Source of the DNA: Sacculina carcini
Lineage: Eukaryota; Arthropoda; Thecostraca; Sacculinidae
Assembly (NCBI GenBank): GCA_916048095.2
Contig: OU696575.1
Coordinates: forward strand, 11,685,468-11,749,467
DNA length: 64,000 nt
Reading direction: 5' to 3'
Shown here in pieces: positions 1-53,879 of this stretch. Position 1 is the first letter of the stretch. Each line of letters begins with the position of its first letter. The translations under genes were made by a program, and so were the position numbers. The notes below the pieces were generated by a model that worked only from the letters and a program-made list of their open reading frames with translations, was not told the origin of the DNA and searched no databases.

Positions 1-1438
1 TCACCGGCGGGGACGGATGTAGAGGCAAAAATGAGACTCGAAGTGAGCGGCCTTTGGAAGTCGTTCGGGATTCCCGTGGTGAATTCCATCAACACTGCAA
101 CTGATCTGCGGGCAAGGATGACTGAGACTCCAATCTTCGACGAAGCGGTAGCACTCGTGACGCGAAACATGTTTCGCAAGGTTTTCTGTCGAGCGTTCTT
201 CTCCCGACACAATCGCTGGCCTAGGTGCCTTCTACTGCCTGGAGTGAGGACGGACATAGAGAAGTCTGTTCGCGACAACAAATGGCTCGAAACAAGTCAA
301 GGCGCATGGTCGTCCTCTGATTTTGAACTGGTGATACTTGAACAAAACTTGACATACGACTACACAACGGACATGTCCGAGCTGCTGACGGACAAAGCTA
401 TCTGTACCGGCAGAGACGACTGCATCACAAATTTCGATCGTCATGCCCACTACGCCATCCACGGGATCCGGGCGCCACTCAGGAAAGGCCGTGAAAGTCG
501 GGTCCTCAGCAAGTACCTGTGTGAGTCCAATCTCTCAGTAAAGGAAGTACTCCAACATATTGAAGAAGGTACGATCCCGTACGAGTGGAGAATAATGATC
601 GGAATCATGAAAGAAAAGGAAGCGAAAATTGACAACGCGCGTTGCTTCTGCAAATTGACCCAAGAGTTGAGAGTGTACCAAACGTCGACCGAGAGGAACA
701 TCGCCAAGAACGTGTTCCCTTACATCCGAGAGCAATCCATGACAATGACCGAAAAAGTGCTTCTCGATACACTGTGCACAATGACAGCCCCGTTTGGAGC
801 CGACGAACCGAAATACGGGTTTGTGAGCCTCGACTATTCCCGATGGTGCCTGTCGATGTCGCACGACTCTTGCTCGGCGTTATTCTTGGAGCTCGATGCT
901 CTGTTCGGGCTAAAACGAGTGTTTTCCTTCTCACAGCTGTTTCCCTACCTCTGCACGGTAGTTTTCCAAGACCGGTTTAGACCTCCTCTCTTTCGGTCCG
1001 ACGAGCCAGATGATGGTCCACAGGTGTGGAGAGCCCCGACCAGGTGAATGGAAGGGATGCGACAGAAGGGTTGGACTCTCCACACCCAATGCACCATCCT
1101 GGCGGTCGCTGAGGAGCGCGGGACGACTGCGACGTTGCTTGGTCAAGGCGATAACCAAGTGATCGTCATCGAGATACCGCCACCTCACGTGTTGGATCGC
1201 CTTGGCCAATCAGCGTCGGAGTTTATGTCCGCGTTCGTCACGAGCTAGGCGAACAGGTCGGCGCTGTTGGGTATGACGCTGAAACCCGATGAAACGTGGC
1301 TGTCGACGGTGCTATTTGAATATAGCAAGGCCTATCACTTCAGAGGCGCCGCCGTCAGCTCCGCGTTGAAACGGGCTTCACGTGTCAATTCGGAGAGCAA
1401 CGACGGGATCCTTAAGTTCTCAAACAGGGTCTCGTCGT
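1..1438 (+). pseudogene. Endogenous viral element: L polymerase fragment, copy 1
   Basis: Conceptual translation in frame 1 resembles the RNA-dependent RNA polymerase part of the L protein of non-segmented negative-strand RNA viruses. Visible motifs are the palm motif A aspartate (DYSRW), a motif B-like segment (GMRQKGW) and the motif C tetrad GDNQ at 1147-1158, which is diagnostic for this virus group. In-frame stops are TGA at 1045-1047 and TAG at 1246-1248, so this copy cannot encode a functional polymerase. It aligns with 3373-4810 at a constant offset of 3372 with no indels and only about a dozen substitutions. It enters from the left window edge, so its true 5' end is unseen. Homology to copy 2 stops at 1438/1439, where retroelement sequence begins. 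The virus family is not resolved. Confidence 0.88.
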
Positions 1439-2121: not shown

Positions 2122-3026
2122 ACATTTGATCCTTACATAGCAGAAATATGTCGCCTCTGCCACTTTCAAATACGCCGCATTTACTATATTCGTAAATTCA
2201 TTGATATCTCTGCTGCTCATAAACTGGCTAATTCCTTTATATTATCTAAAGTTATGTATTGCTGTTCTCTCTTTCTATCTCTCAATCATCGCCAACTCCG
2301 AAAAATTCAGTCAATTATTAATAAGGCATGTCGTCTTGTTTATTTCCTCCCTTATGGTTCTCATGTTTCTCCCTATCTTCTGAAATTAGGGTGGCTTCCT
2401 ATCAAGGCCTTAATTGAATTCCGTATTTGTATATTAATTCACTCTGCTCTTTTGTTCCACAAGCCTGATTACATTTTCAAGCTGTTATCCTATAAATCCA
2501 ACTCCTACTCTCTCAATCTCAGATCTGCTAACAGACTTTTGTTATCCGAGCCTCCATTTCCTTCTCGTCACTCGCATTTTCATCGTTCTTTTTCAATTCA
2601 AGGTCCTCGCATTTATAATAGGCTTCCGCTCTCTCTCCGGTCTATTCAATCGATGTATTCTTTCAAAAAGCAATGCAGAAAACACTTCCTTATTCAATCT
2701 TTTTCTTACATAGGATCTGGACAGTCGCGGCGCGTCACTATTTCTCCATCTTGCCATATTTAACTGTCATTGTTGTAATCTAAACCGACATTATATTTTG
2801 AGTGTGGGTGTGATAATATGTACATATATGTACATAATGTGACATACATGTATATATATGCTCGTCTCATTTGCTGTGTAGATTATCTAAATATGCACTT
2901 TCTCAAAATCTCTATTCAGTTATTTAGTATGTATGTGTATGCTTTCGCGTGTATGTGTGTGTGTGTGGTTTGTTCATGAAAAAAACAAACAAAAAAATCA
3001 AAAAACAAAAAACAAAAAAACAAAAC
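2122..3026 (+). mobile_element. 5'-truncated L2/CR1-like non-LTR retrotransposon fragment
   Basis: The frame ending at 2763 encodes the C-terminal part of a reverse-transcriptase ORF2 (LANSFILSKV, LSLNHRQLRK, INKACR, GPRIYNRLP). It matches the region 13350-13890 of the larger element in this window at the protein level, roughly 60% by eye. The catalytic RT domain and the endonuclease are absent. About 210 bases of AT-rich 3' UTR follow, ending in an A-rich tail (about 2978-3026). The fragment lies between the two viral copies and in the same orientation. Confidence 0.75.
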
Positions 3027-3060
3027 TGCCAATGTCATTGTTCTCATTTTCTTGATGTGT

Positions 3061-6000
3061 TAACTATGTCACACTTGTATGTTGTTCATACCTGTGTTCG
3101 AGGGTTCCCTGCTCTATAGTCGCATCGCCGATGTGTACCAGAAGTACGGAGACTTTAGCCTGTATAATGAGGTGACACGCTTCCTGGAGGCTGGGCGTCG
3201 AGACCTGATTGCCCACGGTAATCTGTTCGCCAATGTTTGGAAACTGATCCCTTCGCTCGGGATTGCTGTAGTTTTGGAAGGCCACGAGCGCATCATGCGG
3301 CACACCTTCAGCCAGCAGATGAGGAGGACGGAGAGATGCATTACCCAGACCCACATGTACCGCTACATGATGTCACCGGCGGGGACGGATGTAGAGGCAA
3401 AAATGAGACTCGAAGTGAGCGGCCTTTGGAAGTCGTTCGGGTTTCCCGTGGTGAATTCCATCAACACTGCAACTGATCTGCGGGCAAGGATGACTGAGAC
3501 TCCAATCTTCGACGAAGCGGTAGCACTCGAGACGCGAAACATGTTTCGCAAGGTTTTCTGTCGAGCGTTCTTCTCCCGACACAATCGCTGGCCTAGGTGC
3601 CTTCTACTGCCTGGAGTGAGGACGGACATAGAGAAGTCTGTTCGCGACAACAAATGACTCGAAACAAGTCAAGGCGCATGGTCGTCCTCTGATTTTGAAC
3701 TGGTGATACTTGAACAAAACTTGACATACGACTACACAACGGACATGTCCGAGCTGCTGACGGACAAAGCTCTCTGTACCGGCAGAGACGACTGCATCAC
3801 AAACTTCGATCGTCATGCCCACTACGCCATCCACGGGATCCGGGCGCCACTCAGGAAAGGCCGTGAAAGTCGGGTCCTCAGCAAGTACCTGTGTGAGTCC
3901 AATCTCTCAGTAAAGGAAGTACTCCAACATATTGAAGAAGGTACGATCCCGTACGAGTGGAGAATAATGATCGGAATCATGAAAGAAAAGGAAGCGAAAA
4001 TTGACAACGCGCGTTGCTTCTGCAAATTGACCCAAGAGTTGAGAGTGTACCAAACGTCGACCGAGAGGAACATCGCCAAGAACGTGTTCCCTTACATCCG
4101 AGAGCAATCCATGACAATGACCGAAAAAGTGCTTCTCGATACACTGTGCACAATGACAGCCCCGTTTGGAGCCGACGAACCGAAATACGGGTTTGTGAGC
4201 CTCGACTATTCCCGATGGTGCCTTTCGATGTCGCACGACTCTTGCTCGGCGTTATTCTTGGAGCTCGATGCTCTGTTCGGGCTAAAACGAGTGTTTTCCT
4301 TCTCACAGCTGTTTCCCTACATCTGCACGGTAGTTTTCCAAGACCGGTTTAGACCTCCTCTCTTTCGGTCCGACGAGCCAGATGATGGTCCACAGGTGTG
4401 GAGAGCCCCGACCAGGTGGATGGAAGGGATGCGACAGAAGGGTTGGACTCTCCACACCCAATGCACCATCCTGGCGGTCGCTGAGGAGCGCGGGACGACT
4501 GCGACGTTGCTTGGACAAGGCGATAACCAAGTGATCGTCATCGAGATACCGCCACCTCACGTGTTGGATCGCCTTGGCCAATCAGCGTCGGAGTTTATTT
4601 CCGCGTTCGTCACGAGCTAGGCGAACAGGTCGGCGCTGTTGGGTATGACGCTGAAACCCGATTAAACGTGGCTGTCGACGGTGCTATTTGAATATAGCAA
4701 GGCCTATCACTTCAGAGGCGCCGCCGTCAGCTCCGCGTTGAAACGGGCTTCACGTGTCAATTCGGAGAGCAACGACGGGATCCTTAAGTTCTCAAACAGG
4801 GTCTCGTCGTTGTTTTCTTCTGGTGCGACCGTTGCAGGGGTAGAATACACGCCACACAGTGCCTACCTGTTGACGCTCATCGAATGTTGCGACGTGCTCT
4901 ACGACGAATTTTGTAACTTGTGGGCTGAAGAAGACGTGTGTACATTGCTGTCGGTCCCTGCCTGTGTAGGAGGGCTTCCGGTAATGCTCTTCAGTGATTT
5001 CCGTTTCAGAGGGATTCTCAGATTCTCTCTCAGACTGCGTTTCTTGGTTATCATTTGTGTCTCAGGCGGATCGTGTTCTTTTCTCATCAATCTCACGACT
5101 GATATATCTCACACCCTCGCCGAGACGCGACCTGGAGTTGTTGTTGCTCAACCCCTTCGCTCTGAACCTGGGAGTGCCTCACACGGCCGAGAATGTGATA
5201 CGCCGACGTGTGAAGGATGATTTACCAATGATAGTGAGAAATCCTGACATTGCTGGACTCTTCTCTGTTCAATCTGCACAACAGAGGAAGGAACTGATCT
5301 CGGACCTCTTAACCATCACTCCGTTCAACCCACGAGTTGCTGCCCACCTATTTAAGTTATCAAACGTCGCCCTCAGCGACAAGGTGGTGGGGCAGTATAG
5401 CACCTCTCATACTGTCCGGCAAACTCTTGAACGGAGTGAGGGAACGGACATTTCAGAAACCGATTTCCGCCAGATGGTCAGTGCTATGGACGAAGGGTTG
5501 ATCACTTACATGCGCACTCGACTCACCCACGCAGATGTACGGAGTATCGAATCGGTTTTACTACACCCGTCTTCATCATGTAGCAACTCGATTGCACAAA
5601 TGCTGAGAGAAAGATCATGGGACAGGAGCATGGAAGGAGTGACAATGCCCAGTACCACAGAACAATGCCTACTATCACGGTGGGATTCGGATGTGATTGA
5701 TCCCAGCCGCTCGATCCTTATCACAGTTGGCAGCTCCTCAGGCAAGCTCTCGACACGTGGACCTCACAAGCCCTACGTAGGCTCATTAACGGCGATGAGC
5801 ACCCGACGATCAAACTTGGCTATCATAGATAGCACATCTATGGTTTCTTCGCTTAAGCAAATAACAGATATGCTCTCGTGGGTTGTGGGTGACGACTCAA
5901 ACCTCGCAACACTTCTTCTCAAAATGTGCTCTGAAAACACTACTGTTAACATCGATGACCTGGTAAAAGTGACCCGCAACGTTGTGGGTGGTTCCGTACA

Positions 6001-8139
6001 ACACCGCCTGCTTGATGACTAATCGTCCCACGGTGCAATGATAAACTCATTGTACAACTATTGTACTCATTGCATCGTGGCGACTGATACTGCAATACAA
6101 TTTGCCAAGCAATCGACAGACTATACGCTCTGTTTTCAGGCTTCGATCCTGTGCGCCTTGTCTAGGCTGTGTATTCTTGAGGCTGAAAACGTGGAAACAT
6201 CCGGCAAATGGGCACTTAGCTTCAACTGTCATGAGTGCACAGTGGAGGTGGGACGATCCTGCTTCGACTTACCAGCGCCACCGACGTACAGCGGACTGCC
6301 TCTTGGGATGCAGGTGACGGAGATCGCGGTAAGTGGGACGGATAATAAGGAGGAGCGTGAAATCGTTGACGCTAGTACAGGACTTGCGTATTACGCCGCC
6401 GACAAGTAGACGACACACATGACCCAATGGGAGAGCAGACATCTGCAGAGCGTGGACATCGGCTCTTCGCATGCATCGGGGCTACCGGGATTCGGTAATC
6501 TGACTGAGATGTCTCTCACTGACCTCAACACGTGTGTACACGGGATTGCACTCTACCTCATCGAACAAGTCGGAGATATTCCTAGAGCTGTCGCGCTTGT
6601 AAGCCGGCTGGCATCTTTCGCGGGAGATGACTCACCCATGAGCCAGCTCGCACGATCGGCTGTGATGAGTGGGCTCAGACATCCTCTGCTCAAGGTCTCG
6701 AACAGGACTGGAGGGACTGCGGTATCTCGGATCGCTGCTTCTCTGACACGACGATTGCTTCGCTTACTCTCTGAGCCTAGTCGCCTTCTCAACTATATGT
6801 TTCTACCTTCACACTACACTTCCGATCGATTTCTCTCCTTCTCTTTGACCATGAAACGTGTGATGAAGCTGCCCGCGAGAGCAGTAAGGCTTAGCTGCCT
6901 CGAGGACGAAGCTACATATATTCAGGCTGCCCGCTCACGTGGCAGAGTTACAGCGAGCGACACGTCAGGCGTTGTTCCGAGAATCCGGGCCTTCGACAAT
7001 CGGTGGCTGAGGCTGAGCGAGGACAACAAGAACCGTCTCAAGCCTTGGCATCAGGACCCATTTGCAGATGCCAACATAGCTTGGTGTCTGGGCTCGGAAG
7101 AGAGGTGCTCACAAGATTTGTTAGCAATTCCGATCCCCGAGGCACCTACAAGGATTGTGAGCTATTCCGACAGGTCGGGGGAGTGTTTCGCTGCTCTCTC
7201 GCACAGGTTCGCAAACCTCGCACCGGGTGTAGTCGTGTTGCCGCTGGGACGGATTGAGAACGCTATAGATGTCAACATAGAACCGTGCGCAGTGAGGTCG
7301 AGAGTGGAGAGTGTGGGTGCGGGTTGGCACTTGATGTGGCAGAAACACTACGATGTAGCATGATTCAACGCCTACCCGTGCTCAGTTCCACGGATCTGAG
7401 TGTGTCGTGTGAGGTATTGCAAGGAGTGCAGTCAGGAATCAGGTGTTTGGTACTGACAAGCCGCTTTTTCTACGGGAAGGCTGAGCACTGCTGGAAGTGC
7501 ATTCTTGGACGAAAATACTGGGTTTATGGACTCACAGGCGACAGGCAATGTGATATCCTAGAAATGATGCCGGCGATACCAGACTATCGAGGTGCGACAA
7601 GAGATATGGAGAGCTGCGTGGCGACTGCGTCTACGTTCGACAGTACATGGCACCTTGAGTGCTTGCAGAGGAGTGAAATCATGCGGGAGGAGTACCTAGG
7701 AGGTTTCAAGGATCAAGTTTCTATTGAAGACAGTCTAATCACAGAATCGAAGGAGTTTATTAAGGCCTTGCAAGGGATGACGAGGGAGAGTCTGTCCAGG
7801 AGGAGGACCCTGTCTCATACACACGGTCGCGGTCGGGCCCGGATGATCCGGCGACATCTGCGTGGGATCGTTCGTAACTTTACTGTTATGCAGTTTCTGT
7901 GTACAACTAGGCCAGCAGCCGTCTCTATCCGTGTGCATTTGCACATTGTGTTGGGAAGATACAAGCTTTGCTGGCGGCCGGAGTACAGACATGCATCGGA
8001 GTTTGAGCTGGATTCCAGGGATTGTGATGTCGCTTTGAGTCGAGACGATATGCTTGTCTTATGGATGATCGGTCGAGATCTGTGTTTTTGCGAGGCGGGG
8101 GCGTTTGCTCAAGCGTTTGGGCGTTTTAATGCTTGTTGA
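3061..8139 (+). pseudogene. Endogenous viral element: nearly full-length L protein gene, copy 2
   Basis: About 5 kb encodes a degenerate L protein (RNA polymerase plus mRNA capping enzyme) of a Mononegavirales/Jingchuvirales-type virus. Polymerase motifs: A at 4204-4218, B at about 4420-4446, GDNQ at 4519-4530. Capping (PRNTase) motifs follow in the usual order: R-x3-W at 5606-5620 with GVT at 5636-5644; Y-x-GS-x-T at 5774-5791; a lone Trp at 5879-5881; His-Arg at 6002-6007; Phe-Gln at 6134-6139. Breaks: TGA 3655-3657, TAG 4618-4620, TAA 4663-4665, a frame 1-to-2 shift near 5010, TAA 6020-6022, TAG 6407-6409, and a frame 2-to-1 shift near 7285-7363. The last frame stops at 8137-8139. The extreme N-terminus is missing. 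A methyltransferase motif after 6419 is not clear to me. Some open stretches exceed 900 bases, which suggests a fairly recent insertion. Confidence 0.9.
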
Positions 8140-8271: not shown

Positions 8272-8278
8272 AAAAAAA
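8272..8278 (+). terminator. A7 run after the viral L frame, possible viral gene-end signal
   Basis: Seven consecutive A, preceded by TTT, lie about 130 bases after the last L stop. Negative-strand RNA viruses use a short homopolymer as the slippage site for polyadenylation at gene ends. The match here is only a short A run, so this is weak. Confidence 0.25.
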
Positions 8279-8320
8279 GTATAAGAGTGATGCGTTGGCG
8301 GTGTCTGAATTCTTTATCTG

Positions 8321-8388: not shown

Positions 8389-8690
8389 AAAGGAAACGTG
8401 AAACGAGTCTCCGAGGCCCTCAAGTCTGTGCCCATCGTCAAGATGAAGACAACCAAGCGTGGCGCAATCGAAGTGAGTCTCCCTGACTCAAAAGCAGCCG
8501 ACAATGCGATACTGGTGATGAAGACTGACAGCCAGCTCAAAGCTTCCTGCCGTGGTCAGATCGTGCCTAAACTTACGATAACGTCAGTCAGTTCTGACAT
8601 CGCAGATACTGAAATTCGTGAAGCTGTGTGCCGAAAAAACGCTGAAGTCAAAGCGGCCATCAAGCATGCATCTGACTTCAAGGTGCTTTT
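8389..8690 (+). pseudogene. ORF1 (gag-like) of the outer L2-like element, first part
   Basis: Open frame encoding a segment with VKMKTTKRG, LPDSKAA, VPKLTI and EAVCRKN. This is the N-terminal half of a retroelement ORF1 that normally precedes CCHC zinc knuckles. The missing continuation appears at about 10510, after the inserted element. Confidence 0.65.
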
Positions 8691-10509
8691 GTGCCTTACC
8701 TTCTCCACCTTATCAACTCTTCTTTTCTGCATGGTGTTTTCTTCCCAGACAAACATGCTATTGTTCGACCCATTATAAAAAAACCTACTCTTGATCCCGC
8801 TGCTCTCACCAATTACCGTCCTATATCTCTCCTCAGTCTTCCCTCCAAACTCCTTGAATCCGCTATTTCATTGCAACTCTCTCCTTACATCTCTAAATTC
8901 CTTGACCCGTGTCAATCTGGTTTCCGCTCTGCTCACTCTACTGAATCTGTACTTATTTCCTTGTGTAATGATACCTTTCACACTTCTCCTACCGTCAATC
9001 TGTCCTCTTGGTATTACTTGATCTGTCCTCGGCTTTTGATCTTGTTAGTCACCCTATTATTATTCGTGATCTTTCCTGTTTGGGTCTATCTTCTTCCGCC
9101 CTTTCTCTTCTGAAATCTTACCTCACTGATCGTACTTACTCAGTTGACTTCAATTCCTCTACCTCTGCTCACTTCCCTCTTCGATCTGGTGTTCCCCAAG
9201 GTCCTTGGCCCACAATTATTTAATCTTTATATGTCTTCTCTTTGCCCTGTTCTCCGAAAACATTCCATTACTTTCAAAATATATGCCGATGACATCCAAT
9301 TCCTCATTCCTGTCACTCCTGATACTCCCTCCTTTCTCTCTGATATACTTTCTGAAATTTCCTCATGGGCCGCCTCTCGGCAGTTGTACTTAAATACTTC
9401 TAAGTCTGAGTTCATCGTCCTCCATCCACCACGTATTTCACCTCCTCTTCTCCCATTTCCTATCTCAACTGCTGTTCGCAATCTCGGCTCTATCTTTGTC
9501 TCTTCGCTCTCCTGCTTTGACAATATCGTTTCTGTCGCCCGCACTTGTCGTCTTATTCTGCGCTCTCTCTACCCTATACGTCCCTATCTTGATAAAAATT
9601 CCGCCATCACCCTTGTTCATACTCTCATTTTCCCCAGGTTAGACTACTGCAACTCGCTTTACTTTAGTGCTCCTCGTTCTCATCTCTTAATCCTTCAGCG
9701 TGTGATCAACCAATCTTGTCGATTTGTCTTTCATCCTAACTTTTCTCGCCACACGTCTCACCTACTTTTTCAACTCCACTGGCTTCCTATCATCCCACGA
9801 ATTCATTTTCGCCTTTGCTGTCTCATTTACAAGCTTTTGCATGATCCTCACCAACCTTCTTATCTTGCTAATCTTTTGTCTCCCACTGACTCACACTCCT
9901 CTCGTCGCCCTCTTCCTCTCGCTTGTCCTCGTGCATCTAATGAATCTTCCTGGTCCTCTAAATCGTTCTTCTTTTACGCCCCTCGCTTGTATAATTCTCT
10001 TCCCTCTCATATCACCCGCGCCTCTTCATTTCGGTCATTCCGCCGTCGGCTTCGCCTGTACCTTTTTGACATTTCATTTGATCCCGTCTCTCACTCTCTC
10101 TCTCCTTTCGCCTCTCTGTGATATTGTTTGAACTATTTCTCCGTTTCATGATTGTTTCAATTATCCTCGTTGTCTTATTTTTCCCTGTCTTGAGCACAGT
10201 TACTGCTTCCTTTCCTTCCTTGCTGCTTTATTTATTCTATTGTGAATGTTCTCTGTAATAATTCTCTGTCGATTTTATTGTTCGAACATACCACTTGATT
10301 TTTTGGAACTGTGCCCTTTGTGCTTGTGCTTGCTATTTACCAATTTCGGTTGTTTTGTGACTTCTCTTTCTTTTACTTGCTCATTTCTCCCATATTCTTT
10401 ACAATTGTCGCTTTATCTCAATTGATGCTTTCCGTTTTTCGCGCTTGTGTTTTACCGGCGCTATAGCAAATACACGTTGTTGTTGTTGTTGCTTTTTGTT
10501 TGTTGTTTG
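8691..10509 (+). mobile_element. Inner 5'-truncated L2/CR1-like element inserted in ORF1
   Basis: Encodes an RT domain split over shifted frames: NYRPISLLS at about 8813, SGFRSAHSTE, GVPQG, then YADD at about 9282-9293 and a long frame 9144-10121 covering the RT C-terminus (WLPIIPRIHFR, PRLYNSLPSHI). A frame shift separates GVPQG from the YADD block, so it is not functional. The 3' UTR ends in a GTT-rich tail at about 10474-10525, beyond which ORF1 of the host element resumes. It belongs to the same broad clade as the outer element but is clearly divergent from it. Confidence 0.8.
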
Positions 10510-46335: not shown

Positions 46336-49300
46336 TGTTAGTGTGTTAGTGTGTGTGTGAGTGTTAGTGTGTTTGTGTGTGTGTGTTAATGTGTGTTAGT
46401 GTGTGTTAGTGTGTGTAAGTGTTAATGTGTGTTAGTGTGTGTTAGTGTGTGTAAGTGTTAATGTGTGTTGGTGTGTGTGAGTGTTAGTGAGTGTTAGTGA
46501 GTGTTAGTGTGCTAGTGTTAGTGTGTTAGTGTTGTATAATTGAGCTAATTGTTGTTATTATTAATAGTAATTGATTGTTGGCGTGTAATGTCAGTCAGGT
46601 GTATAATTGTACATAATTCACGCTACATTAGGCTGATCAGGCGGGTCATTGTGACATTAGTCGCGTGCGTGTCGAGCCAATATTGTTTATTTTTCACCTC
46701 CACATGCTCGTAAATGCTCGCACAATTGTTTGTGTGTGTGTTTGTTTGTGTGTGTGTGCTAATTGCTTTTGTGCGTCTGTGTGTGTGTGTATGAATATAG
46801 GGTGGCGTGAATATATGGTGTATGTATTGGTGAATGTTTGTGTGTATGTATTGGTGTATGTAGTGGTGTATGTATTGGTGTATGTAGTGGTGTATGTATT
46901 GGTGAATGTTTGTATGTGTGTATGTATTGGTGTATGTATTGGTGTATGTATTGGTGAATGTTTGTATGTGTGTATGTATTGGTGTATGTATTGGGGTATG
47001 TATTGGTATATATATTGGTGTATGTAGTGGTGTATGTATTGGTGTATGTAGTGGTGTATGTATTGGTGAATGTTTGTATGTGTGTATGTATTGGTGTATG
47101 TATTGGTGTATGTATTGGTGTATGTATTGGTGAATGTATTGGTATATATATTGGTGTATGTAGTGGTGTATGTATTAGTGTGTGTATTGGTGGATGTATT
47201 TGTATATATATTGGTGTATGTAATGGTGTATGTATTGGTGTAAGTATTGGTGTATGTATTGGTGTATGTTTGTGTGTATGTATTGGTGTATGTATTGGTG
47301 AATGTGTGTGTGTGTGTGTGTGTTTATTGGTGGATGTTTGTTTGTGTTTATTGGTGGATGTTTGTTTGTGTTTATTGGTGGATGTTTGTTTGTGTTTATT
47401 GGTGGATGTTTGTTTGTGTTTATTGGTGGATGTTTGTTTGTGTGTATTGGTGGATGTTTGTTTGTGTTTATTGGTGGATGTTTGTTTGTGTTTATTGGTG
47501 GATGTTTGTGTGTGTTTATTGGTGGATGTTTGTTTGTGTTTATTGGTGGATGTTTGTTTGTGTGTATTGGTGGATGTTTGTTTGTGTTTATTGGTGGATG
47601 TTTGTTTGTGTTTATTGGTGGATGTTTGTTTGTGTTTATTGGTGGATGTTTGTTTGTGTTTATTGGTGGATGTTTGTTTGTGTTTATTGGTGGATGTTTG
47701 TTTGTGTTTATTGGTGGATGTTTGTTTGTGTTTATTGGTGGATGTTTGTTTGTGTTTATTGGTGGATGTTTGTTTGTGTTTATTGGTGGATGTTTGTGTG
47801 TGTTTATTGGTGGATGTTTGTTTGTGTTTATTGGTGGATGTTTGTTTGTGTGTATTGGTGGATGTTTGTTTGTGTTTATTGGTGGATGTTTGTTTGTGTT
47901 TATTGGTGGATGTTTGTTTGTGTTTATTGGTGGATGTTTGTTTGTGTTTATTGGTGTATGTTTGTTTGTGTTTATTGGTGGATGTTTGTTTGTGTTTATT
48001 GGTGGATGTTTGTTTGTGTTTATTGGTGGATGTTTGTTTGTGTGTATTGGTGGATGTTTGCTTGTGTGTATGTATTGGTTGATGTTTGTTTGTGTTTGTG
48101 TTCACGCAGTTACTTGGATTTTGAGTTGTTAGTGACGGTGCAGTACAGCTACTGCGTGCAGGCGGTGTGTTTGTGTGTCAACCTCGTGGCCACGTGCTCC
48201 TCCCACCAACTGCATGTTGTACAACTGCACTCTGCTGCACGTGATTCTGTCACGTGCCACGTGACCGAGACTGCACGTGGCACGTGGTCGACACGTGGCA
48301 GTTGTGCTGAATCACCGCCGGTAATGTTGCATTATATCAGTCCGCCACCACTGCACGTCTTGATGTGTATGTATGTGTCAGTTTGTCAGTGTGTGTGTTA
48401 ATTACTGCCTGACGTGGGTGATGTTGTGTTGTTGCAGGTGATATGGCACGTGGATACGGCGAGACCGGACCTTGATAACCTGGCATCTTGCAGTTACCAG
48501 CACTCCATCACCAACAGTGCTGATCAGGACGGCATCATGCACGCGCCTGCCTCCTTGTTCTGGCCACTACATTCAGCACGTGAAAGTCACGAGCCTCGAC
48601 TGATACCATCTCCCACTGCCCAGCTGCACGAGCGCACGTACACGTTGTATGTCTGTCTGCAGTGGACTGAGCCTGACGCAGAGCGAATAATCGTCGAGTC
48701 GCTGCAACTCTCTCCCTTCTTCCAAGCTTTGTCCGGTGAATTTCTGTTATTCTGCCTGTCCGACGTTGTTCATCACTCAGCTCAGACAATTACAATTTCC
48801 GCTGTGGCTCAATAAATGACTGATTAATGTCCTGCGTTTGTTGTTCCGACCAATTGTTGCTGTCGATTTGTTATTAATCACTTATTTGTTATTGTTATTA
48901 ATCTAATCTTAATGTTATTGTTATTTGTTGTTGTTATTTGTTATTGTTATTGTCAATTTGTTGTTAATTTGTTTTCAATTTGTTGTCGATTTGTTGTTAA
49001 TTTGTTGTGTATTTGATGTGGCAGAGACGCGCGGTGAGGTTGATGTTACAGTGCCTGCCAACGCTCCTGCGGCTGACGGATGTAATGATGATATGAATGG
49101 TGCTCGTGTGCTGAACGACAGCTTGATGTCTCCTCGTCGTCCCCTCGCTGTTTCTGTGTTTTTCTCGGCTTCACACGAGGGTCGCACGTTCCTGCTGGAC
49201 ACACAGGGAGCCAGGGGTACTGCCTGCTGCTGTCATTATGTCGGCACGCACTGCTACACTGCTCCTCTCCTGCTGGCTGCCAGACAAACACATCTTCTGC

Positions 49301-49992
49301 ACGCGCTCACACTGGAGGGTCTCGGTGTGTGCCATCATTTTGCCGTCATCTCACTGACAAGCTGTACTTGCTTGTCTCTCACTGATTCATGTCTGGTTAT
49401 GTACTGGCTGAATGTGTTAATGTGGTATTATGTCATATTTGAATGTATTAATTAATGTGTTAGTATGTGATGTTTGAATGAATTCATTAATGTGTTAGTA
49501 TCTGATGTTTGAATATGTCAATTAATGTGATGGTATGTGTCGATTAATGTGATGTTTGAATGTGTCAATCATTATGGTATTATGTTATTTAATAAATGTG
49601 TAAATTAATGTGATGTAATTTCATGTTGAATATGTAAATTAATGTGTTGTTATTTGCTGCATCAGTGTGTCAGTTCATATGTGTTTGTGTGTTCATAGAG
49701 ACGTGTACAGTTCGTGACACGCGCGTGCTTAGTGAGAGGTGTGAGAGGAAGAGGGGCGGCGGTGTCGCTCCCACGCCCTGTCTTACTGATTGTGTGTGTT
49801 TGCTGGGTCAACATCAGTTATTCAACGTGTCACATATCTGCCCCACTAGATCTCGTCTCTGTTTGTTGTCTTCACCATCAGCACGTGATGGCGATGTTGC
49901 TGGCAGGTGAGTGGGCCTGCTGTTACGAGTACATCACGTGTCACTGTCTGTGAAGCAGTGATATTGAGCCATCATGATGAAGATGATGTAAC

Positions 49993-50041
<49 letters not shown>

Positions 50042-53000
50042 CGGCGGTGGCGAGGAGACGGGCACATTGTACATGATACAGCTGATGCACGTGGCTCAGT
50101 TGTGTGACGAACTGACACGTGCCAGCAAATCGCACGTGCATGAGGCTCGTGTGATGGCTCGTGCATTGCTGGATGAGGCGGTGATGATAGCTCGCGCCAG
50201 TGCTTGTTGGCAGTTGTCCCTCGAGGCTCAGTCCACTGAACTGCTTATTTCAGCTGATAATCTCGAGCGTGGATTGTGTGCTGAAATCGGTCATTTTCTG
50301 CTGAGGTTCATCTGGCCTACACTTTGCTCATATTCTGATTGGGTCATTGTACTTTCCTTCTGTTGTTTTGTCCTATATATTAATGCTTGTAATTCACATC
50401 TGACAAAGCTCTGCATAACAAGTGCATTACAACATTGAAATGCACAGTTTCACAAAAACACAGAGTACTCTAATAACGATATACTCGTTCTGTTAGCTCA
50501 TTGCCCGGCCCCTTGCTAGACGCCATGTTGAGCGACGTGGTTGATATTGTGTGTGTGACAGTTCGGTGGAGCCTGATGACTGGCGCGAGGCGGGCCGCTG
50601 GTTGATGACGTCACTCGAAAGTCTGGCCGCTACGATGAAGCGTAGCTGGCACGAGCCTGGCCTCTCCTCGCACGTGCTAGCTCGTCTCACGAGCGCTTCG
50701 TCCGCGACCACGCCTGCTTATGACGAGGCGAACCGGGCGATATCGCTGATAATTGAGCGCAGTCGCGCTTCATTGCCCAGTCTCCTGTTATCGCCTCATA
50801 AGCAGCTGACTGAGTTCTGCCACCGCGCTGCTCTGCAAGCCCTGCTCTCTCTGCTCGACGACTGTGATTGTGCACGAGACGCCGACTGCTCGGACGTGTG
50901 TGTGGCGGCCCTGTCTCTGGTCCCGTCGCCACGTGATTCTTGTGTGACGTCACTGCTGGCTCGCGTGCATGCTGACACTGTGCACCTCATCCAGCCTCAC
51001 TTGCTACTACACTGTCACCAGTACAAGCAATCCTCGCTCACCCCTCTCTCTCTGCTGCTGGCGGATTGTGAGCGACTGTGCCGCCATCTGTCTCGAAGAC
51101 TGGCAGTTTTATGCGTTGACCGGCAGATGTCGCTATGTGACCTGCTCACTGCGCTCGTTCACGCTGCTCACACGACTAATTCTGCTCGCGCGCGTTCTCT
51201 ACAGATCATACTGCGAGACTCACTCGAGCACTATTACTCACTGGTAACTCACACTATTACTCACTGGTAACTCACACTATTACTCACTGGTGACTCACAC
51301 TATTACTCATTGGTAACTCACACTATTACTCACTGGTAACTCACACTATTACTCACTGGTAACTCACACTATTACTCACTGGTAACTCATACTATTACTC
51401 ACTGGTAACTCACACTATTACTCACTGGTAACTCACACTATTACTCACTGGTAACTCACACTATTACTCACTGGTAACTCACACTATTACTCACTGGTAA
51501 CCCACACTATTATTCACTGGTAACCCACACTATTACCCACTGGTAACTCACACTATTATTCACTGGTAACCCACACTATTACTCACTGGTAACTCACACT
51601 ATTACTCACTGGTAACTCACACTATTAATCACTGGTGACTCACACTATTACTCACCGGTAACTCACACTATTACTCACTGGTAACTCATACTATTACTCA
51701 CTGGTAACTCACACTGTTACTCACTGGTAACTCAACACTATTACTCACTGGTAACTCACACTATTACTCACTGGTAACTCACACTATTACTCACTGGTAA
51801 CTCACACTATTACTCATTGGTAACTCACACTATTACTAACTGGTAACTCACACTATTACTCACTGGTAACTCACACTATTACTCACTGGTAACTCACACT
51901 ATTACTCACTGGTAACTCACACTGTTACTCACTGGTAACTCACACTATTACTCACTGGTAACTCACACTATTACTCACTGGTAACTCACACTATTACTCA
52001 CTGGTAACTCACACTATTGCTCACTGGTAACTCACACTATTACTCACTGGTAACTCACACTATTACTCACTGGTAACTCACACTATTACTCACTGGTAAC
52101 TCACACTATTACTCACTGGTAACTCACACTATTACTCACTGGTAACTCACACTATTACTCAACACTAACTAACTCCTGCCTGCCTACTTGTGTCTAGCAT
52201 TAAGACTGTCAGATTCCAATCTTACATTCTTTCAATCTTATATCATAAGAAGCGATGTGTTACGACACCGATTCATCCGGGCGTGTTTGTGTTTGTATGT
52301 TTGTGTGTTTGTTAGGTGCGTATCAACAAGGAGAGTCATTATCAGCCAGTTTCTATCACACTTTTGATTCGCGCGTATCTCAGCGTTATCAGCAATGTCA
52401 CAACGTCTGTGAGTGATGAATGTGCGAGTGCCACTGAGCTTATAACTGGCCAGCGACAAAATGAAACAAACCGTATTTCCCCGACTAACTCCCATCTTCA
52501 CAATGTCTCCCATAACACCACCAACACTGCGGGTGTACATGGTGAAGTTACTGAAACTGGTGACTCACTCGATGCTGGTACACATGGTGAAGTTACTGAA
52601 ACTGGTGACTCACTCAATGCTGGTGTACATGGTGAAGTTACTGAAACTGGTGACTCACTCAATGCTAGTACACATGGTGAAGTTACTGAAACTGGTGACT
52701 CACTCAATGCTGGTGTACATGGTGAAGTTACTGAAACTGGTGACTCACTCGATGCTGGTACACATGGTGAAGTTACTGTAACTGGTGACTCACTCAATGC
52801 TGGTACACATGGTGAAGTTACTGAAACTGGTGACTCACTCGATGCTAGTACACATGGTGACTCACTCAATGCTGGTACACATGGTGAAGTTATTGAAACT
52901 GGTGACTCACTCGATGCTGGTGTACATGGTGACTCACTCGATGCTAGTACACATGGTGACTCACTCAATGCTGGTACACATGGTGAAGTTACTGAAACTG

Positions 53001-53526
53001 GTGACTCACTCAATGCTGGTACACATGGTGAAGTTACTCGGCAGTTGGACGTGTTCGGAGCTCGAGCGGTCTGGTTGAATCAGTTGCCTCCGTTCAGTGG
53101 ACCCCCTCATCCTCGTCAATTGGCCTCCAATCCTCAACTGGCCGATCTTATATTGTTACAGGTGAGTTCATAGTGTCTCATACGCTGATATAATTCAACA
53201 TGCTGTCAATGAAACACTCTCTCTCTCTGTGTGTATGTGTCAAGGTTTCTGCATGTTTGTGTTTGTGTGGTCAGAGTATTATCGGCAACGGGTTGGCATC
53301 TGGCAAAGATTGTGACGATATTGTCGAGTTTGTGCGAGATCGATCAGCTGACTCGCTGCTGGGCCGGGATTCTTTGTTGATGCTGTGTTCTGATATGACT
53401 GCATCTGTTGATCTGCTCATCTCAAAATACCCGCACGTCGTCACCGAATACGCCAAGGTATCCGTCTGTGACGCTCACTATTATCTCGTCTCTTCAACAC
53501 ATCACATCTCGCCAAACTTTCACTAT

Positions 53527-53570
<44 letters not shown>

Positions 53571-53879
53571 GCGTGTTGTTCTAGTGTTTCGGAGTGGGTG
53601 TTGGTGTTGTTGCGCGTGTCAGCAGCTCGTGTTGAGGCAGTGTTGTGTGCGGCCGTGGATGAGGCCTCAGTACTTGAGGACTGCATGTCTTGTATGATAC
53701 AACACGTCAGTTCACAACTGGACCCACAACAATTACGTCAATTGCTCGATCAACTGACACTTTCCACCACTGGCCAGCCACTGTCTGGCGGTCTGCTGGA
53801 CCGCTGCAAGACGCACTGCAACAATGTGCAACATGCACAACTTGTGCAACATTGGCTGCTGCAACTGACACAACACTGA
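45552..53879 (+). CDS. HPS3: HPS3-like BLOC-2 complex subunit (N-terminus missing)
   Basis: HPS3 is a subunit of BLOC-2, which works in vesicle traffic to lysosome-related organelles. Eleven phase-compatible exons: about 45552-45746 (GDYVATLE, YTKWRSDSVES), 46071-46207 (GSVCCIDVCSSSGNIAAARN), 48110-48320 (YLDFELLVTVQ), 48438-48735, 49025-49324, 49699-49906, 50042-50305 (LYMIQLMHVAQLCDEL), 50562-51243, 52316-53161, 53275-53457 (SVDLLISKYPHVVTEYAK) and 53571-53879 (TGA). The order of these blocks follows animal HPS3: an N-terminal beta-propeller-like half and a helical half. Exon 52316-53161 contains a species-specific Gly/Thr/Glu-rich repeat of about 160 residues. AATAAA lies at 54049-54054. 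The first exon is probably in or before the gap. The donor after 46207 (GTCCTC) is weak. Identity rests on remembered family blocks, so a related propeller protein is possible. Confidence 0.75.
46207..46520. repeat. CT-rich, (TG)n and GTGTTAGT arrays
   Basis: Microsatellite DNA beginning at the donor of HPS3 exon 46071-46207. Confidence 0.9.
46790..48080. repeat. 12-bp then 24-bp minisatellite
   Basis: First part (46790-47330): GTATTGGTGTAT units. Second part (47330-48080): about 31 units of TTTATTGGTGGATG plus TTTGTTTGTG. The second looks derived from the first by duplication and substitution. It fills the HPS3 intron up to about 30 bases before the next acceptor. Confidence 0.97.
49998..50040. 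repeat. (TG)n tract forming a 3' splice site
   Basis: About 20 TG units followed directly by TAG and the HPS3 exon at 50042. Confidence 0.95.
51232..52161. repeat. 23-bp minisatellite, about 40 units, built on a 5' splice site
   Basis: Each unit contains TTACTCACTGGTAACTC. The first unit is the exon/intron junction of the HPS3 exon ending at 51243 (CACTG|GTAACT). The array fills most of the intron. Confidence 0.97.
52540..53036 (+). repeat. In-frame 48-bp coding minisatellite within HPS3
   Basis: About ten units of 16 codons (HGEVTETGDSLDAG), with shorter units lacking EVTETG. Every length change is a multiple of three, so the frame is kept. Acidic and polar, it is probably a disordered loop. 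Confidence 0.9.

What the first reader, a model, noticed from the sequence alone, without database searches (positions are those of the whole stretch)
3061..8139. Nearly full-length L gene of a negative-strand RNA virus fixed in an animal genome
Seen: GDNQ polymerase motif plus all five ordered motifs of the capping (PRNTase) domain (R-x3-W...GVT, YVGSLT, Trp, HR, FQ) in one 5-kb tract. Established: GDNQ and the HR-bearing PRNTase are hallmarks of Mononegavirales and Jingchuvirales L proteins. Most endogenous copies of such viruses are short N or L pieces, so a tract covering most of L with few breaks is unusual and probably young. It may represent an undescribed virus lineage.
Basis: partly seen in the sequence, partly recalled or inferred. 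Interest (0 to 1): 0.88.

Follow-up and report, generated by a model that had tools for sequence, protein, structure and literature searches.

The report
Fossil virus polymerase in tandem arrays
The DNA holds a broken, nearly complete polymerase gene of a bornavirus-like RNA virus, one of many such viral copies in this genome, several of which have been multiplied into side-by-side repeats.

Summary
Observation confirmed. Window 3064-8137 (+) is a decayed L gene of an order Mononegavirales virus: five stops, two frame changes, about 178 N-terminal residues missing (inferred), inside an 11.9-Mb contig. The window's first 1438 bases are a second copy, 99.2% identical; the 10 kb upstream add further units that carry retroelement fragments along, so this array grew after integration.

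The larger result is genome-wide. At least 12 L loci lie on 10 contigs; 7 of the 12 show head-to-tail repeats, the others were only partly fetched. Most loci compared differ at saturated synonymous sites with far fewer amino-acid changes (virus evolution, separate insertions). Array copies differ as neutral DNA does (22 synonymous, 60 nonsynonymous, 4 stop). Three loci keep the order N-P-small ORF-L with a shared border motif and no glycoprotein gene in between, so genomic, antigenomic or read-through RNA was copied there.

Nearest known kind: endogenous bornavirus-like elements. Family membership is not settled: the N match is below Pfam's cut-off and no G was seen. The host could not be named. 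A recurrent, possibly glycoprotein-less lineage with amplified DNA copies is the novel part.

The parts
1..1438 (+). second, partial copy of the L gene (equals 3373-4810); continues upstream of the window
   Evidence: 99.235% identity, 11 differences, no gaps; continues in L009
1439..2017 (+). retroelement-like fragment joined to L copy 1; part of the tandem unit. 'Restriction-like endonuclease end of a non-LTR element' is recalled; no Pfam match
   Evidence: 0 families; repeated in L009 and 94% identical to a stretch of L027
2121..2975 (+). tail of a non-LTR retroelement (CR1-like by recall), part of the tandem unit; no Pfam match itself
   Evidence: 0 families; part of it 74% identical to a stretch of L029, where the open frame on that strand carries RVT_1
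2976..3063 (+). A-rich stretch between the retroelement tail and L
3064..3654 (+). L piece a (before the catalytic core)
   Evidence: PF00946 E 5.4e-9; 72-77% over its length to C16, C10, C21 and C29 copies
3658..4617 (+). L piece b, RdRp core with GDNQ
   Evidence: PF00946 E 4.1e-44; PDB L proteins E 1.7e-36; P0001 63%
4666..5217 (+). L piece c (L-like up to about residue 116); the reading frame changes inside 4985-5217
   Evidence: PF00946 E 2.2e-9
4985..6019 (+). L piece d, end of RdRp and start of the PRNTase capping domain
   Evidence: PF14318 E 6.9e-21, PF00946 E 5.4e-15; PDB E 3.4e-14
6023..6406 (+). L piece e, rest of the capping domain
   Evidence: PF14318 E 9.7e-9; no PDB match
6410..7360 (+). 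L piece f, no known domain; L by match to sister loci
   Evidence: 79% to the C29 copy; 61-71% to C10 parts
7258..8136 (+). L piece g, C-terminal part; frame differs from piece f
   Evidence: residues 9-136 63% to C10; the rest is an open frame only
8274..8281 (+). AAAAAGTA, possible L gene-end signal
   Evidence: like motif at gene borders in C20, C24, C16, C21; 5 occurrences on the two strands of the whole window
8676..10121 (+). separate reverse-transcriptase element downstream
   Evidence: RVT_1 E 1.7e-6 (28.3 bits, cut-off 29.6) and E 1.2e-8 (35.3 bits) in two frames

Best explanation
The tract is a pseudogene: an endogenous viral element made from the L gene of a bornavirus-like negative-strand RNA virus. 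Viral RNA was reverse-transcribed by a host retroelement enzyme and inserted in the germ line (inferred). A segment carrying the front part of this L together with retroelement fragments was then repeated in tandem (shown), and copies have decayed without detectable constraint (shown for seven arrays as a set). The same happened repeatedly: related but distinct virus strains were captured at many places, and 7 of the 12 L loci found were multiplied in tandem. At three loci more than one gene was captured together, in the order N-P-small ORF-L.
For: L identity piece by piece. Host context: place in an 11.9-Mb contig, retroelement sequence on both sides, GC 0.52 against 0.417 for window 12001-64000. 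Tandem: window copy 1 to copy 2 99.2%; L009 shows the unit retroelement-tail-L repeated at a 3714-base period. One stop is shared by both window copies, other stops are private to one of them. Separate captures: among five clade-A loci piece b has saturated dS with dN 0.05-0.14, tree. Neutral after capture: 22 synonymous, 60 nonsynonymous and 4 stop changes over 5289 S and 17016 N sites (my sums), ratio about 0.9; the 19 comparisons are not all independent. Multi-gene template at C20, C24 and C16: gene borders kept with the AAAAGT motif. Retroelement contact: Ty3/gypsy-type RNase H and integrase frames directly beside L pieces in L012 and L032, and in L027 a P-like frame runs on into RVT_1.
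Against: I did not search for target-site duplications, so the insertion chemistry is inferred. Retroelement contacts are mixed: in L014 a non-LTR-type frame (endonuclease, RT, RNase H) lies about 400 bases from L, in L019 an RT frame lies between L pieces, and the window copy abuts non-LTR-like fragments; contact may also be chance in transposon-rich DNA. The tandem excess was tested only against 156,300 neighbouring bases; the planned control on other retroelements never ran. Five of the 12 loci showed no array in what was fetched, but the C16 match at 1.99 Mb itself was not fetched. Stop codons account for 3 of the 11 differences between the window copies, more than I would expect from so few. 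C24 and C8 differ little (dS 0.48), so their capture may not be fully separate. The template of the window's own copy (L alone) could be mRNA.
Confidence: 0.86

Rival explanations
1. The L copies are a host gene family: virus L genes taken over by the host, kept for a function and multiplied.
For: 26 of 50 matched L stretches have no stop inside; C20 and C24 copies are saturated or nearly so at synonymous sites while their proteins are 82-95% alike; precedent bat eEBLL-1 (PMC4865735).
Against: Within arrays the ratio of changes is near that of neutral DNA; the window copies and stretches at C10 and C29 carry stops; conservation between loci is what replicating virus strains would show before capture.
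Confidence: 0.07
2. Each locus came from one L mRNA copied by a LINE, as for mammalian EBLN/EBLL, and multi-gene loci are exceptions or read-through transcripts.
For: The window holds no N-like or P-like sequence and lies beside LINE-type fragments; a non-LTR-type frame also lies near L in L014; LINE-1 insertion is the route given for bat EBLL (PMC4865735). Target-site duplications were not searched for here.
Against: Three loci keep N-P-small ORF-L in order with the border motif between genes; Ty3/gypsy-type frames abut viral pieces in L012, L027 and L032.
Confidence: 0.18
3. Assembly artefact or contamination: virus reads or unmerged haplotypes make false copies.
For: Two window copies are 99.2% identical, which could be two haplotypes joined; a 200-base N gap lies in L009.
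Against: Copies lie inside multi-megabase contigs with transposons; seven arrays have different units and identities from 97.5 to 99.98%; stops and joins to retroelements are not those of a replicating virus.
Confidence: 0.04
4. The arrays were concatemers of viral DNA before insertion (for example rolling-circle copies of circular viral DNA), not duplicated afterwards.
For: In C24 the end of a truncated L runs straight into a complete N at two places of L018, with six N matches in 27 kb; C10 units join head to tail within a few bases.
Against: The C7 unit contains retroelement DNA; the C16 array repeats an internal L segment behind one N-P-small ORF-L start.
Confidence: 0.12

Closest known systems
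Endogenous bornavirus-like L elements (EBLL; bat eEBLL-1, 1,718 codons, PMC4865735, passages read)
   Same: L of a mononegavirus most like bornavirus L, in animal DNA, nearly full length
   Different: Here a broken copy in a tandem array, many separate captures in one genome, and multi-gene captures; a 264-Mb genome is far too small for a bat (recalled)
Mononegavirales RdRp elements in invertebrates and protists (PMC12548735, passages and section 11 read): Pomphorhynchus laevis 18 sequences, Perkinsus olseni 9, arthropods 96
   Same: Several divergent L-derived copies in one genome
   Different: Those are described as fragmented (P. laevis on unplaced contigs); I saw no arrays or gene order described in the parts I read
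Tandem totivirus-like capsid genes in yeasts (PMC2805616, passages read)
   Same: Virus-derived genes in tandem, explained there by duplication after integration
   Different: Double-stranded RNA virus, two to four divergent copies, yeasts; here up to 18 scored matches at one locus and 97.5-99.98% identity within arrays
Family Bornaviridae (ICTV profile PMC8491894, abstract start and passages seen)
   Same: N, P, a small third ORF and L in that order; N match to BDV_P40 below the cut-off
   Different: No G found between the genes; the profile gives hosts as mammals, birds, reptiles and fish

Membership tests
Mononegavirales L protein | RdRp domain with GDNQ | tested here: met
   PF00946 in four pieces; GDNQ in piece b
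Mononegavirales L protein | PRNTase capping domain | tested here: met
   PF14318 in pieces d and e
Mononegavirales L protein | C-terminal methyltransferase-type domains | tested here: inconclusive
   no Pfam match and no significant PDB match in pieces f and g
Endogenous viral element | joined to host DNA in a chromosome-size contig | tested here: met
   G000:C7:11685468-11749467; contig length 11,928,946; retroelement sequence on both sides
Endogenous viral element | present in independent individuals | not testable with these tools
   one assembly only
Bornaviridae | L closest to bornavirus L | tested here: inconclusive
   best of solved structures, 129 bits against 80.5 and 273 against 181; naming those chains bornaviral is recall; Nyamiviridae, Mymonaviridae and Xinmoviridae L were not compared
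Bornaviridae | bornavirus-type nucleoprotein (BDV_P40) | tested here: inconclusive
   E 3.6e-4 and 1.1e-4, 20.0 and 21.7 bits against a cut-off of 26.3 for C20 and C16; no PDB match; none of it lies in the window
Bornaviridae | glycoprotein gene G | tested here: inconclusive
   no room for a gene between the small ORF and L in C20, C24 or C16; BDV_G search of the genome found nothing but its controls were silent too
Bornaviridae | replication and splicing in the nucleus | not testable with these tools
   no RNA data
Chuviridae / Jingchuvirales | L closest to chuvirus L | not tested
   no chuvirus L was compared

The most novel reading that the evidence does not exclude
This animal has lived with a lineage of bornavirus-like viruses that carry no glycoprotein gene and pass from parent to offspring inside cells. 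Their full-length RNA is copied into the germ line again and again by retroelement enzymes, and the captured copies are multiplied into tandem arrays that feed small-RNA defence, a growing inherited memory of a persistent virus.
Probability: 0.12. Interest if true: 0.85.

Novelty: new variant of a known kind. Interest (0 to 1): 0.62.

Why it matters
[quoted passage not shown] A genome with 12 or more L loci, more than half of them tandem arrays, and multi-gene captures that keep viral gene borders lets one test directly which RNA was reverse-transcribed, by which enzyme, and whether amplification of captured virus DNA is selected. The gene order also suggests an undescribed bornavirus-like group without a glycoprotein, which would bear on how such viruses spread.

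Tried and rejected
Searches that led nowhere: viral contigs with piece b and with alignment A1, no relative; proteins like piece d, none at E 0.001; PDB for pieces e, f and g, nothing significant; tRNA and Rfam scans of the window, empty; PDB with the N alignment, no match.

Considered and rejected: another genetic code (the in-frame stops are TGA, TAG and TAA alike); an intron at the frame change near 5000 (sister loci run on from piece c to piece d without a gap); a programmed frameshift shared with P0001, whose frame ends at nearly the same place (reasoned from its protein only: the direction seems to differ); two independent insertions of one virus for the window copies (they share a stop).

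Not obtained: the retroelement control (PF00078) and a let-7 search for the host's phylum, never answered; the fold comparison with viral structures, never answered. The model of piece b (mean pLDDT 59.8) is weak and was not used. No search for target-site duplications was made.
Full report
What is in the window. The tract 3064-8137 (+) was searched as seven open pieces, never joined. Four pieces match Pfam's Mononegavirales polymerase and two its capping domain. Of proteins with solved structures the best matches to piece b are four L sequences of 1711-1756 residues (up to 129 bits), then a 2127-residue one at 80.5 bits; the first group I take from recall to be bornavirus L. Pieces f and g match nothing significant in Pfam or PDB but parts of them match sister loci. 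The copy is broken: stops at 3655, 4618, 4663, 6020 and 6407 and two frame changes. Compared with a C16 copy that has an L start, about 178 residues are missing in front (inferred). Behind the last stop, at 8274, lies AAAAAGTA, found 5 times on the two strands of the window; a like motif stands at viral gene borders elsewhere in this genome. So L may run to its natural end.

The second copy. Window 1-1438 equals 3373-4810 with 11 differences and no gaps. One stop is common to both copies, two stops are private to the long copy and one to the short copy. The shared stop means decay began before the duplication. Ten kilobases upstream (L009) continue the pattern: retroelement fragment, retroelement tail, A-rich stretch and the front of L, repeated with a 3714-base period. 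The retroelement parts are copied with L, so this array was made in the chromosome. N-like and P-like proteins have no match in the window or in L009 at E 1e-3.

The genome. A search of the window's own assembly (264 Mb, 43 contigs) with PF00946 gave 50 matches, a lower bound because 43 of 253 candidates were scored. My count of that table: 12 loci on 10 contigs, namely C1 (14 matches), C7 (2), C8 (4), C10 (2), C16 at 6.86-6.92 Mb (18), C16 at 1.99 Mb (1), C20 (1), C21 (1), C23 (2), C24 (1), C29 at 1.14 Mb (2) and C29 at 4.20 Mb (2). Within 26 of the 50 matches there is no stop. Seven of the 12 loci are head-to-tail arrays: C7, C16 (6.9 Mb), C1, C8, C24, C23 and C10, with repeated stretches 97.5-99.98% identical, and six nucleoprotein matches in 27 kb at C24. 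The other five showed none, but they were only partly fetched and the C16 match at 1.99 Mb itself was not fetched. In 156,300 control bases next to or between these loci, viral parts cut away, no repeat unit of 500 bases or more was found apart from minisatellites in the window. The better control, other retroelements genome-wide, did not complete.

Separate captures, then neutral decay. For piece b, five related loci (C7, C10, C16, C21, C29) differ by 8-21% in protein while synonymous sites are saturated; dN is 0.05-0.14. C20, C24 and C8 form a second group at about 49% identity to the window; C20 is saturated against both others, C24 against C8 has dS 0.48 and dN 0.009. C1 and C23 form a third, far group (tree; some long branches, so deep joins are unsure). 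Such change is that of replicating viruses, so most loci are separate captures. Inside arrays the picture reverses: over 19 frame comparisons in seven arrays, 22 synonymous, 60 nonsynonymous and 4 stop changes on 5289 synonymous and 17016 nonsynonymous sites (my sums), a ratio near 0.9. The comparisons are not all independent, and codons that are stops in the first copy were skipped. The arrays as a set are thus not under detectable constraint, which speaks against a host gene.

What was copied. At C20, C24 and C16 the L stands behind a nucleoprotein-like ORF (349 residues in C20; 402 from stop to stop in C16), an ORF taken as P by its position, and a small ORF of 95-104 residues; C21 keeps part of the small ORF and L. 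The N-like proteins of C20 and C16 match BDV_P40 at 20.0 and 21.7 bits, below the 26.3-bit cut-off; they are 29% identical to each other. An AAAAGT motif stands at the gene borders: three in C20, three in C24, five in C16 (one before N, two between N and P) and one in C21. A set of separate mRNAs would not keep these borders, so the template there was genomic or antigenomic RNA or a read-through transcript. No gene lies between the small ORF and L, where a glycoprotein would be expected. The genome-wide BDV_G search was empty, but its controls were silent too, so absence of G rests on gene order at three loci in two virus groups. N-like matches also occur on C10, C19, C25, C15, C35, C22, C4, C9 and C2 (24 matches in all, the weakest at E 7.6e-4).

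How it got in. Ty3/gypsy-type frames lie directly beside L pieces in L012 and L032, and in L027 a P-like frame runs on into reverse transcriptase. Others lie some kilobases off (L026, L033). Against a single route, a non-LTR-type frame lies about 400 bases from L in L014, an RT frame lies between L pieces in L019, and the window copy adjoins non-LTR-like fragments. Template switching by an LTR-element enzyme fits some loci but is not proved. In the C16 array the repeated unit is an internal L segment, which fits duplication in the chromosome. In C24 a truncated L runs into a whole N at two places, which could be a concatemer formed before insertion.

Relatives elsewhere. Piece b has 11 relatives at E 1e-5 in the protein collection (only proteins of 0.55-1.75 times its length are candidates), the best P0001 at 63% on a 6.3-kb contig and P0002 at 38% on a 322-kb contig; none is named after an organism or virus. 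The N alignment found one, P0012, 42% over 99% of 349 residues (8000 candidates scored). IMG/VR gave nothing.

Papers. Near full-length L in animal DNA is known (bat eEBLL-1, PMC4865735, passages), tandem duplication of captured RNA-virus genes is known from yeasts (PMC2805616, passages), and many Mononegavirales copies in invertebrate genomes are known (PMC12548735, passages and one section). My eight literature searches listed no title or abstract start that describes tandem arrays of mononegaviral L; most listed papers were not opened. Bornaviruses replicate in the nucleus and splice (PMC8491894, passages), and that profile's abstract gives their hosts as mammals, birds, reptiles and fish (abstract start).

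Verdict. As a single element it is ordinary; the arrays, the recurrence and the multi-gene captures make it a new variant of endogenous bornavirus-like elements. Main gaps: host unnamed, family membership unsettled, retroelement control missing, insertion signatures not searched.

Noticed in passing
L027:5779-7215 (-): A P-like viral frame runs in frame into a reverse-transcriptase domain, with RNase H and integrase in the next frame: a virus-retroelement fusion.
   Followed up: partly
L012-L014 (C1) and L025-L026 (C23): Tandem arrays of a far more divergent L group (about 22-30% to the window) with long open frames.
   Followed up: partly
L021:6814-9129 (C29): Front of L appears twice, the two parts differing in similarity to the window (b 81% and 92%): perhaps two strains joined.
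   Followed up: no
L011 about 5335-5355 and 7705-7730; L019 about 5880-5900: A pyrimidine tract ending in AG just before the starts of L and N, like a splice acceptor; bornaviruses splice their RNA.
   Followed up: no
window 1-1438 and 3373-4810: Three of the 11 differences between the copies concern stop codons, more than I would expect from so few changes.
   Followed up: no
P0001, end of frame: This 63% relative loses its frame within a few codons of where the window copy changes frame near 5000.
   Followed up: partly
window 1-64000: Very many minisatellites and TG/CA repeats (122 rows, periods 2-135 bases), most of them beyond 14000.
   Followed up: no
window 48402-53873: A likely host gene in several exons; the five frames tried there gave no significant Pfam match.
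   Followed up: partly
L032:6618-7595 (-): An L capping-domain piece about 7 kb from the C16 match at 1.99 Mb, next to a Ty3/gypsy-type frame; the stretch between was not fetched.
   Followed up: no
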